Shown here piece after piece: positions 38,542 through 62,881 of a stretch of 64,000 bases of DNA. The notes below the pieces were generated by a model. That model was given only the letters and a program-made list of their open reading frames with translations. It was not told where the DNA came from and searched no databases. Source of the stretch: a virus. The stretch covers positions 34,913 to 98,912 of the IMG/VR virus record IMGVR_UViG_3300033233_000019, one strand, 5' to 3'. The translations under genes were made by a program, and so were the position numbers. Within the stretch, counting starts at the first letter, position 1. Every line of letters starts with the position of its first letter.

Positions 38542-38996
38542 TGTCTCACAATGACGATACAAGGCGTTGGCGATTAGCCCATCCTGAGCAGGACAAAGCA
38601 GCCAAAGAAAGTTGGAAACAAAGTAATCCAAATCATCACGCCACTTGGAGAAAGAACAATCGAAGCAGGATTCGCGGATATGCATTGAAGCGAATTTATG
38701 GTATCACACTCAAACAGTTTGATGCAATTTTTGAAGCACAAGGAAGTTGTTGCAAAATTTGTAAATCGACTGACCCGAAGGGACGACACAATTCGTGGCA
38801 TGTCAATCACGATCATAATTTAGAGGGCAAAAACATTCGCGGTATACTTTGTCAGCGGTGCAATCTTACACTTGGGCAATTGGAGAACAACAATTTGTTG
38901 CAATCTATGTCTGCTTATCTTGAGAATGCCAGCCACAATATACAGACAAATCGTGACCTGTGCCTCAAGGAAGAAGAAAATGGTAATACAAAGTAA
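38541..38996 (+). CDS. Endonuclease VII-like homing nuclease
   Basis: This 151-residue protein has LKRIYGITLKQFDAIF, CKIC, VNHDHN, GILCQRCNLTLG, then a longer C-terminal tail than other copies. The first Asp of DHDH is Asn here. It is inserted inside the lysis gene group between two membrane proteins and overlaps the downstream gene by 17 bases. Confidence 0.82.
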   Translation: MSHNDDTRRWRLAHPEQDKAAKESWKQSNPNHHATWRKNNRSRIRGYALKRIYGITLKQFDAIFEAQGSCCKICKSTDPKGRHNSWHVNHDHNLEGKNIRGILCQRCNLTLGQLENNNLLQSMSAYLENASHNIQTNRDLCLKEEENGNTK

Positions 38997-39345
38997 CGAA
39001 GTACATCTGGCTTGGCATCAAGCAATCGCACCTTGGCTAACTGTACTAACGCCATTAACCATCATCGGGATCGCATGGAAATTGCGTGGTTGGATCGATG
39101 ATTTCAAAGCTGGAATCGCCAGCTTCAAAGCCGGGATCGAAAACAAAATTGATGTTCTCGCTAATAATCATTTGGCTCATGCCAAGATGGATATCATCGA
39201 AGCAGTTAACGAGGGAGTGAAGGTTGAGTCGGCACAGCATCATGGCATTATCGACGCGGTAAGAGAAGCGAACGCGGACACAGCAACGGCAGTGCGCCAG
39301 AGCGGTGATCGTATCGTGGACACATTGATCGCTCTGAAGAAATAA
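38980..39345 (+). CDS. Single-span membrane protein, lysis-region
   Basis: This 121-residue protein starts at 38980 with SD AAGGAAGAAG; the frame is open from 38872. One transmembrane segment lies near residues 15-32 (WLTVLTPLTIIGIAWKL), followed by a long amphipathic helix. It could be a holin, antiholin or anchoring protein. Function not assigned. Confidence 0.5.
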   Translation: MVIQSNEVHLAWHQAIAPWLTVLTPLTIIGIAWKLRGWIDDFKAGIASFKAGIENKIDVLANNHLAHAKMDIIEAVNEGVKVESAQHHGIIDAVREANADTATAVRQSGDRIVDTLIALKK

Positions 39346-42102: not shown

Positions 42103-42177
42103 CAGGGTATAGCTCAGATGTAGAGCACACCGTTTGGGGCGGTGGGGTCGGAGACTCAAGCCCTCCTACCTTGACCA
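42103..42177 (+). tRNA. tRNA-Pro (anticodon TGG)
   Basis: Acceptor CAGGGTA pairs with TACCTTG, with C1-G72 and A73 as in bacterial proline tRNAs. The anticodon stem is CACCG/CGGTG with loop TTTGGGG, and CCA is encoded. The T-arm has one weak pair. It reads CCA and other proline codons. Confidence 0.85.
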
Positions 42178-42345
42178 TTTATAAAGCCAGCGCGTCTACG
42201 CGGATTCGTAGACCCCGTGCTGCCGGGGCCGTGAGGCGGGTGGCGCAAATTTGAATTGCAAGCAGGTTCGCCCTTGCTCGTGAGAGCGTAAATCCAGTCG
42301 CCTGTGTACGGTTGGGAAGCGCGTATAGGCAACCGACGAATTTAT
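42178..42345 (+). ncRNA. Structured RNA of unknown class between tRNA-Pro and tRNA-Met
   Basis: This 168-base region has no ORF and no ordinary tRNA. Hairpins include GTCTACG/CGTAGAC (42194-42213), CCCG/CGGG (42214-42227), GCTC-GTGA-GAGC with a GNRA loop (42276-42287), and CGGTTG/CAACCG (42309-42335). It lies exactly between two tRNAs and would be released when they are processed. It may be a degenerate or rearranged tRNA or another small RNA. Confidence 0.4.
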
Positions 42346-42422
42346 AGCGGGATGGAGAAGTCTGGTATCTCGTCTGGCTCATAACCAGAAGATCGAGGGT
42401 TCAAATCCCTCTTCCGCAACCA
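42346..42422 (+). tRNA. Initiator-like tRNA-Met (anticodon CAT)
   Basis: This 77-base tRNA has anticodon loop CTCATAA in stem TCTGG/CCAGA, T-loop TTCAAAT and encoded ACCA. Positions 1 and 72 are A and A, a mismatch like the C1-A72 mismatch that marks initiator tRNA. The D-arm begins GGAG with A11 as in E. coli tRNA-fMet. Two of the three G-C anticodon-stem pairs of initiators are present. An initiator tRNA is the best reading. Confidence 0.85.
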
Positions 42423-42567
42423 CTGAGACGGAGACACGGGTTCGACTCCCGTACTGGCACCGACTAACGATTAAGTCCGTAAGCGGATACGCTGTAAGGA
42501 CAGTGCCGCAAGGCTGAAAATAATCCGTTAGTCCCGGTTAGTTCAATGGAAGAACACCGTCATTATT
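42423..42567 (+). tRNA. Circularly permuted tRNA candidate (3' half, linker, 5' half)
   Basis: The 3' half comes first: anticodon-stem strand GACGG (42427-42431), T-arm ACGGG-TTCGACT-CCCGT (42436-42452) and acceptor strand ACTGGCA (42453-42459). The 5' half comes second: acceptor strand TCCCGGT (42532-42538), TA, D-arm GTTC-AATGGAA-GAAC (42541-42555) and anticodon-stem strand CCGTC (42557-42561). Across the halves the anticodon stem pairs 5 of 5 and the acceptor 6 of 7. The linker is a hairpin domain closed by GACTAACGATTA (42462-42473) with its complement at 42521-42533 (one bulged C). Joining CTGA (42423) to ATT (42562) would give loop ATTCTGA, anticodon TCT (Arg), but the join is not certain. 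Confidence 0.55.
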
Positions 42568-42642
42568 TGTAGGATGGCAGATTGGCTATGCGCGGCACTG
42601 TTAATGCCGACGAGACAGGTTCGATTCCTGTTCCTACAGCCA
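42568..42642 (+). tRNA. tRNA-Asn (anticodon GTT)
   Basis: Acceptor TGTAGGA pairs perfectly with TCCTACA. The anticodon stem CGGCA/TGCCG holds loop CTGTTAA, the T-arm is ACAGG-TTCGATT-CCTGT, and discriminator G and CCA are encoded. It starts directly after the permuted candidate. Confidence 0.85.
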
Positions 42643-46704: not shown

Positions 46705-46778
46705 GCGGACATGGTATAGAGGCTGTGCCGTAGGTTACCACCCTGCTGACGCGAGTCCGACTCTCGCTGTCCGCTCCA
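46705..46778 (+). tRNA. tRNA-Gly-like (anticodon ACC)
   Basis: Acceptor GCGGACA pairs perfectly with TGTCCGC. U73 and C35-C36 fit glycine identity and CCA is encoded. Anticodon stem GTAGG/CCTGC holds TTACCAC, giving anticodon ACC. The T-loop is TCCGACT, with C in place of T55. An adenosine at position 34 for Gly and the altered T-loop are both unusual. Confidence 0.7.
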
Positions 46779-62225: not shown

Positions 62226-62660
62226 CTAAAAATTTCCTTCGGCGCATTGAAAAACTTTGTAGCCCTTTGACCTGTACATATTTACAACCTGATACCGATC
62301 ATCGAATATACCCACGATGCTTGACAAGTCATACGCCTCGCCAACCTTGCGGAGCATTTGCTCTTTGACGATGTTGTCCGGGCGGTGATCACCAGCCTTC
62401 CGCATGAACAGATCGTCGTATGGCACGTCATACCGACGTAGCCACGCTCTCGTGGCGGCTTTGCACTCGTCGCTTCTGCCGCTCATCATTATGATAGTGG
62501 CACCAGCGGCCTTGAGCAGCTTGATCGTCTGGATCACAGGCCAGATTGGACTGTCGAGATTAACCGCACCAAAGAATCCGCGCCAGTCTTTCTCAGCGAT
62601 GAAATGGATGCGATGCTGGCAATCAGCAATCGTTCCGTCAATGTCACAAAGATAAATCAT
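62226..62660 (-). CDS. HAD phosphatase, polynucleotide-phosphatase-like
   Basis: This 144-residue protein starts at 62660 in an ATGA overlap; the frame is open from 62696. HAD motif 1 is DIDGTIAD (D6, D8), motif 2 is MMSGRS and motif 4 is GIFDDR. It resembles the phosphatase domain of T4 polynucleotide kinase-phosphatase, without the kinase. It could remove 3' phosphates from nicked RNA or DNA ends. Confidence 0.75.
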   Translation of the reverse strand: MIYLCDIDGTIADCQHRIHFIAEKDWRGFFGAVNLDSPIWPVIQTIKLLKAAGATIIMMSGRSDECKAATRAWLRRYDVPYDDLFMRKAGDHRPDNIVKEQMLRKVGEAYDLSSIVGIFDDRYQVVNMYRSKGYKVFQCAEGNF

Positions 62661-62881
62661 GCAGACACCACTCTCGTGATCTTCATTTCGGGCCAATGGT
62701 AGCCGTGCTTTTGCGAATATGTGTTCGTGCGACCGATGGCGTTACGCGCAGCGTCGTATGTGGGAAACAGTGTCGCGTAATGGTTTAGCCAAGTCACGTT
62801 TTTGTAACCGAGCGTCTTGGTACGACCTTCGACAGTTGTAACCAAGTACCCGACTGTTTTCTTAGATGAATAGGTCTTCAT
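62657..62881 (-). CDS. Unknown small protein
   Basis: This 74-residue protein, probably beta-alpha, has many aromatic residues (NHYATLFPTYDAARNAIG). It overlaps the HAD gene by ATGA and the next gene by 20 bases. Unknown. Confidence 0.5.
   Translation of the reverse strand: MKTYSSKKTVGYLVTTVEGRTKTLGYKNVTWLNHYATLFPTYDAARNAIGRTNTYSQKHGYHWPEMKITRVVSA

What the first reader, a model, noticed from the sequence alone, without database searches (positions are those of the whole stretch)
42423..42567. Circularly permuted tRNA gene in a phage, nested between two normal tRNAs
Seen: the 3' half of a tRNA (anticodon-stem strand, T-arm, acceptor strand) precedes its 5' half (acceptor strand, D-arm, anticodon-stem strand). 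Across the halves the anticodon stem pairs 5/5 and the acceptor 6/7, with a normal T-loop and D-arm. The linker (42462-42531) folds back on itself through a 12-pair stem and two hairpins with GATA and GCAA loops. The CCA of tRNA-Met ends at 42422 and tRNA-Asn starts at 42568, so processing those two would create the free ends inside the anticodon loop. Known: permuted tRNAs occur in some algae and archaea and mature through circular or ligated intermediates. Inference: this RNA needs ligation at the anticodon loop, possibly giving tRNA-Arg(TCT). The HAD phosphatase at 62226 resembles an end-healing enzyme, but no RNA ligase is in this window.
Basis: partly seen in the sequence, partly recalled or inferred. 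Interest (0 to 1): 0.88.

Follow-up and report, generated by a model that had tools for sequence, protein, structure and literature searches.

The report
Permuted tRNA-like RNA between phage tRNAs
Between two ordinary tRNA genes this phage carries a small RNA gene shaped like a tRNA with its halves swapped; it looks more like the tRNA-mimicking core of bacterial Y RNAs, without their usual protein-binding stem, than like a gene for a working tRNA, though the second is not ruled out.

Summary
At 42427-42561 a T-arm half precedes a D-arm half. The halves pair 5/5 (anticodon stem) and 6/7 (acceptor), and a structured 72-nt segment closes the acceptor. The element lies 4 and 6 nt from tRNA-Met and tRNA-Asn. 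Random halves of normal phage tRNAs pass the same pairing test in 0.04% of pairs. A covariance model built only from other phages' modules recovers it (48.8 bits, E 2e-13).

The ligated tRNA-Arg(TCT) reading is weak. As encoded, the joined loop has 10 nt, not 7. There is no CCA. The acceptor has a C-C mismatch, and the head helix takes over its first two bases. No Rnl1, Rnl2 or RtcB gene was found in the 98.9-kb record.

The topology is that of the tRNA-mimic core of bacterial Y RNAs (YrlA), which I find often in phage tRNA arrays, sometimes with a Ro60 gene. Those keep at least 16 nt to neighbouring tRNAs, room for the Ro60 stem. The window element and three others in two unrelated phages sit 0-9 nt from tRNAs, without that stem.

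Best reading: a stemless Y-RNA-like tRNA mimic released by processing of its tRNA neighbours. Rivals: a permuted tRNA gene, or a remnant. Four true relatives lack it, so covariation could not be tested.

The parts
42346..42422 (+). tRNA-Met(CAT), ends with encoded CCA; its 3'-end processing would set the 5' end of the element
   Evidence: ARAGORN; Rfam 60 bits
42423..42426 (+). 5' spacer CTGA (would be loop bases 35-38 of a joined tRNA)
   Evidence: sequence
42427..42431 (+). anticodon-stem 3' strand GACGG
   Evidence: pairs 5/5 with 42557-42561
42436..42452 (+). T-arm ACGGG-TTCGACT-CCCGT
   Evidence: Rfam aligns it to a tmRNA T-arm
42453..42459 (+). acceptor 3' strand ACTGGCA (5 bp used in the predicted fold)
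42460..42531 (+). 72-nt head: 12-pair stem and two hairpins (GATA and GCAA loops) closing the acceptor arm
   Evidence: fold
42532..42538 (+). acceptor 5' strand TCCCGGT (first two bases taken by the head stem in the predicted fold)
42541..42555 (+). D-arm GTTC-AATGGAA-GAAC (A at position 20)
42557..42561 (+). anticodon-stem 5' strand CCGTC
   Evidence: pairs with 42427-42431
42562..42567 (+). 3' spacer ATTATT
   Evidence: sequence
42568..42642 (+). tRNA-Asn(GTT); RNase P cleavage here would set the 3' end of the element
   Evidence: ARAGORN; Rfam 54.7 bits

Best explanation
A small structured RNA built on a circularly permuted tRNA fold, of the same architecture as the tRNA-mimic module of bacterial Y RNAs (YrlA), with an enlarged acceptor-arm head and without the Ro60-binding stem. 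Shown here: order, pairing, recovery by a model made from Y-RNA-like phage modules, and flush packing between tRNA genes, also seen in two unrelated phages. Inferred: processing of tRNA-Met at its 3' end and of tRNA-Asn by RNase P releases it as a nicked-loop RNA with 5'-phosphate and 3'-hydroxyl ends, and it acts unligated as a tRNA mimic for host RNA enzymes, such as PNPase (the partner of the YrlA core) or tRNA-processing and tRNA-cleaving enzymes.
For: Model R1, built from five permuted modules of other phages (Y-RNA-like), finds 42427-42561 full length at 48.8 bits, E 2.3e-13. The Rfam YrlA model has the same order of arms and hits the cores of similar phage modules (L258 and L635 full length, L180, L282, L234), some in records with a TROVE/Ro60 gene (G024, G028, G032 above the cut-off, G030 below it; G012 with Ro60 near two Y RNAs). 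Four CM-supported modules in three unrelated phages sit 0-9 nt from both tRNAs (window, G022, G023a, G023b), whereas modules with an outer stem sit at least 16 nt away. In G022 and G023a the acceptor is capped by 4-6 nt (a GTAA loop in G023a), and L163 has a large acceptor head like the window. No 7-nt loop would result in any of the four, and U33 is present in only two. No ligase of three families was found in the records of these three phages (PF09511; RtcB; PF09414). Literature: YrlA tRNA-like domain and its PNPase and Rsr partners (PMC8394870); Y RNAs suspected near tRNA genes in a Listeria phage (PMC12282133).
Against: No Rfam YrlA hit in the window even at E 10; no Ro60 in the record and no room for a Ro stem. 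R1 cannot tell a mimic from a permuted tRNA, and tandem paralogous normal tRNAs also score highly (46 of the listed hits overlap normal tRNAs). Four true relatives lack the element, so selection is not shown. The window's own loop does contain U33 and a possible TCT anticodon.
Confidence: 0.5

Rival explanations
1. A true circularly permuted tRNA-Arg(TCT) gene: the neighbours' processing makes ends in the anticodon loop, a host or undetected phage RNA ligase joins them, RNase P and 3' processing remove the 72-nt head, and CCA is added.
For: U33 and a possible T34 C35 T36 G37 A38; A20 in the D-loop, an arginine identity base in E. coli (own knowledge); intact T- and D-loops; no other tRNA-Arg in the record; AGA is used at 8.3 per 1000 codons. 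Known permuted tRNAs have intervening sequences of 1-74 nt (PMC3978253). The ends expected from processing would suit an ATP-dependent ligase.
Against: 10-nt joined loop as encoded, three bases too many; C-C mismatch; no CCA although the neighbouring Met and Asn genes encode it; head helix competes by 5.7 kcal/mol; no PF09511, PF09414 or RtcB in the record; similar flush modules in other phages lack U33; no report of a phage or bacterial permuted tRNA gene was found in the library searched.
Confidence: 0.2
2. A non-functional remnant: two tandem tRNA-Arg copies lost their outer halves, or a Y RNA lost its outer stem, and the piece persists in a labile tRNA cluster.
For: Cross-pairing is expected from common descent alone; absent in four relatives sharing many genes; acceptor mismatch; no partner gene; strong hairpins and tRNA-like debris lie in the same cluster (42178-42345).
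Against: All but one of the arm pairs intact with consensus T- and D-loops; strong fold (z -3.4); flush ends on both sides; the same state occurs in other phages.
Confidence: 0.25
3. A permuted (two-piece) tmRNA or a permuted group I intron-tRNA.
For: Permuted gene order; Rfam tmRNA aligns the T-arm.
Against: Only the T-arm matches tmRNA; a true D-arm is present; no tag region; no intron hits in the window; flanks are tRNAs.
Confidence: 0.03

Closest known systems
YrlA, bacterial Y RNA-like RNA (Rfam RF02553), tRNA-mimic module
   Same: Order T-arm, closed acceptor stem, D-arm, enclosed by an anticodon-stem-like helix; lies in tRNA clusters of phages
   Different: No Ro60-binding outer stem, no Ro60 in the record, 72-nt head on the acceptor arm, no match to the Rfam model
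Circularly permuted tRNA genes of red and green algae and Thermofilum pendens
   Same: 3' half before 5' half; intervening segment within the known 1-74 nt range; junction in the anticodon loop
   Different: Bounded by other tRNAs rather than leader and trailer with a splicing motif; no ligase found; no proper acceptor end; loop of 10 nt
Permuted (two-piece) tmRNA
   Same: Permuted gene order; product can work as two pieces without ligation
   Different: No tag region, has a D-arm and a 5-bp anticodon stem

Membership tests
Circularly permuted tRNA gene | 3' half encoded upstream of 5' half, together forming a cloverleaf | tested here: met
Circularly permuted tRNA gene | joined halves give a 7-nt anticodon loop with U33 | tested here: not met
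   10 nt as encoded; 7 nt with U33 only after assuming a 3-nt trim
Circularly permuted tRNA gene | enzyme able to join the ends | tested here: inconclusive
   no PF09511, PF09414 or RtcB in the 98.9-kb record; host unknown, record may be incomplete
Circularly permuted tRNA gene | circular intermediate and mature charged tRNA | not testable with these tools
   needs RNA from infected cells
YrlA / bacterial Y RNA | tRNA-like module in permuted order | tested here: met
   model R1 48.8 bits; same layout in the Rfam YrlA alignment
YrlA / bacterial Y RNA | outer stem that binds Ro60/Rsr | tested here: not met
   4 and 6 nt to the flanking tRNAs
YrlA / bacterial Y RNA | Ro60 (TROVE) gene in the genome | tested here: not met
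   record may be incomplete
YrlA / bacterial Y RNA | match to Rfam RF02553 | tested here: not met
YrlA / bacterial Y RNA | binds PNPase, carries tRNA-type modifications | not testable with these tools
   needs experiments
Permuted tmRNA | tag-encoding region | tested here: not met
   only the T-arm aligns
Permuted group I intron-tRNA | intron halves flanking the permuted exons | tested here: not met
   flanks are tRNA-Met and tRNA-Asn; no intron hits

The most novel reading that the evidence does not exclude
A working circularly permuted tRNA-Arg gene in a bacteriophage whose ends are made by processing of its two tRNA neighbours and joined by a host or unrecognised RNA ligase, which would be a first outside algae and archaea.
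Probability: 0.17. Interest if true: 0.86.

Novelty: new variant of a known kind. Interest (0 to 1): 0.52.

Why it matters
Phage tRNA arrays seem to hold tRNA mimics that ordinary tRNA finders miss. If the stemless modules are made as stable RNAs, they would be the Y-RNA core working without Ro60, cut out by neighbouring tRNAs, and a simple system for asking what the tRNA-mimic module does in infection. If the ligated reading were true, it would be the first permuted tRNA of a phage. One sequencing experiment separates the two.

Tried and rejected
Group I intron and tmRNA readings. Orthologues in relatives: terminase and exonuclease relatives fetched; none of the four that share many genes has the module, so no covariation test was possible. 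G012 first looked like a close relative with a Y RNA and Ro60 but shares little more than the exonuclease gene. Cultured phages: only tRNA-level similarity. G021 (L193/L380), a 72-nt-linker candidate from my pattern finder, was not supported by the covariance model and is set aside. Many R1 hits of 37-67 bits are tandem paralogous normal tRNAs and were removed by overlap with ARAGORN genes. Covariation over the collected modules was not counted, because they were selected by pairing. Search of a bacterial genome collection for flush nested modules gave only planctomycete Y-RNA-like loci, a lone unclear locus and normal tandem tRNAs. A search with filters off split the hit because of the long insert.

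Full report
What is there. The window is bases 34913-98912 of a 98,912-base virus record that encodes terminase, portal, DNA polymerase A, UvsX-like recombinase and six Rfam-scored tRNAs: Thr, Pro, Met, Asn, Ala and Gly. Anticodon-stem strands pair 5/5, acceptor strands 6/7, and the T- and D-loops are canonical. The element folds as a closed cloverleaf better than nearly all shuffles (z -3.1 to -3.4).

Is it chance? My permutation finder returns this single site on both strands of the 64-kb window. Random pairs of 3' and 5' halves of different normal phage tRNAs pass the same acceptor and anticodon test in 151 of 386,629 cases, 0.04%. A covariance model, R1, built only from five modules of other phages, finds 42427-42561 over its full length at 48.8 bits, E 2.3e-13 in 215 kb. 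The caution is that tandem paralogous normal tRNAs can also score this high; here no normal tRNA overlaps the halves.

Does it look like a tRNA gene? Joined as encoded, the loop is ATTATT+CTGA, 10 nt, and ARAGORN cannot assign it; only after a 3-nt trim does it become Arg(TCT). The acceptor has a C-C mismatch and no CCA follows, although the neighbouring tRNA-Met and tRNA-Asn encode CCA. The stem of the 72-nt head takes the first two acceptor bases; pairing base 1 with base 72 instead costs 5.7 kcal/mol. Neither T4-type RNA ligase family nor RtcB was found in the record (PF09511 rings in three of the other phage records tested, so that search can detect it in phages). Processing of the neighbours should leave 5'-phosphate and 3'-hydroxyl ends (general knowledge of RNase P and RNase Z), so the PNKP-type phosphatase at 62226-62696 is not an obvious partner. 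In favour of a tRNA are U33, a plausible TCT anticodon, A20, and the absence of another tRNA-Arg.

What else has this shape? The Rfam alignment of YrlA, the tRNA-mimicking bacterial Y RNA, has the same order: T-arm, closed acceptor stem, D-arm, anticodon-like stem, then the outer Ro60-binding stem. Pattern scans of viral contigs with the finder and R1 revealed many such modules that no tRNA finder calls. Several match YrlA by Rfam below its gathering score, and several lie in records with a TROVE/Ro60 gene. In G012 a Ro60 gene is followed by two Y-RNA-like hairpins, one with and one without the tRNA-like module. A Listeria phage paper suspects Y RNAs near the tRNA genes with an Rsr-like protein downstream (PMC12282133), and a jumbo-phage survey reports TROVE proteins with a tRNA-like partner (PMC7824862).

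Two kinds of module. Modules with outer stems stand at least 16 nt from neighbouring tRNAs. Four modules in three phages stand 0-9 nt from tRNAs on both sides, with no room for that stem and no TROVE match in their records: the window, G022, and two in G023. In G022 and G023a the acceptor is capped by a 4-6-nt loop (GTAA in G023a), which looks like a finished end. L163 shows a large head on the acceptor of an otherwise Y-like module. If joined, none of the four gives a 7-nt loop and only two have U33. The permuted layout is therefore shared while a decoding loop is not. G023 also holds a module with room for an outer stem (L385 18133-18217), so both kinds can occur in one phage.

Interpretation. 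I favour a stemless Y-RNA-like tRNA mimic with an enlarged acceptor head, released by processing of its tRNA neighbours and working unligated (0.50). It is not filed as a Y RNA, because the outer stem, the Ro60 gene and the Rfam match were tested and not met; the claim is that it works like the YrlA core. Its target is inferred: the YrlA core contacts PNPase and is modified by tRNA enzymes (PMC8394870), and competition with an anticodon nuclease has been suggested for YrlA (PMC7790460). A remnant (0.25) and a true permuted tRNA (0.20) remain open. The weakest point is conservation: four relatives sharing many genes with this phage (G008, G011, G013, G014) lack the element, so compensating changes could not be sought.

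Known permuted tRNAs are from algae and archaea, with intervening sequences of 1-74 nt, maturing through ligated circles (PMC3978253). I found no report of one in phages or bacteria in the library searched; the library holds only open-licence papers.

Noticed in passing
L376:815-890 and L376:898-1040 (+), record G012: Two adjacent Y-RNA-like hairpins, one with a tRNA-mimic module, just downstream of a TROVE/Ro60 gene (G012 38659-39321): a phage Ro60-Y RNA cassette.
   Followed up: partly
L385:8431-8757 (-) and L180:6599-6962 (-), record G023 and a 99.9% identical contig: A phage contig with about 40 tRNAs also carries a permuted tmRNA (Rfam RF04321 104 bits; tag ANDANGALALAA).
   Followed up: no
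L388 8954-9021, 11717-11785, 12086-12154 (+), record G024: Several permuted tRNA-like modules in one tRNA array of a 351-kb phage contig that also has TROVE and RNA ligase genes.
   Followed up: partly
L632, L635, L636, L637 (planctomycete genomes): YrlA-like permuted modules with long similar flanks, below the Rfam gathering score (Rfam tested for L632 and L635).
   Followed up: partly
L163:8639-8776 (+): Y-RNA-like module whose acceptor arm carries a large structured head of about 70 nt, like the window element.
   Followed up: no
window 42178-42345: Strong hairpins and degenerate tRNA-like sequence between tRNA-Pro (42103-42174, missed by ARAGORN) and tRNA-Met.
   Followed up: no
window 62226-62696 (-): Stand-alone PNKP-type 3'-phosphatase domain without kinase or ligase found in the record.
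   Followed up: partly
window 46705-46778 (+): tRNA-Gly with the unusual anticodon ACC.
   Followed up: no
L380:14919-15053 (-), record G021: Second candidate with a 72-nt linker right after tRNA-Thr(TGT); pairing by finder but not supported by the covariance model.
   Followed up: yes
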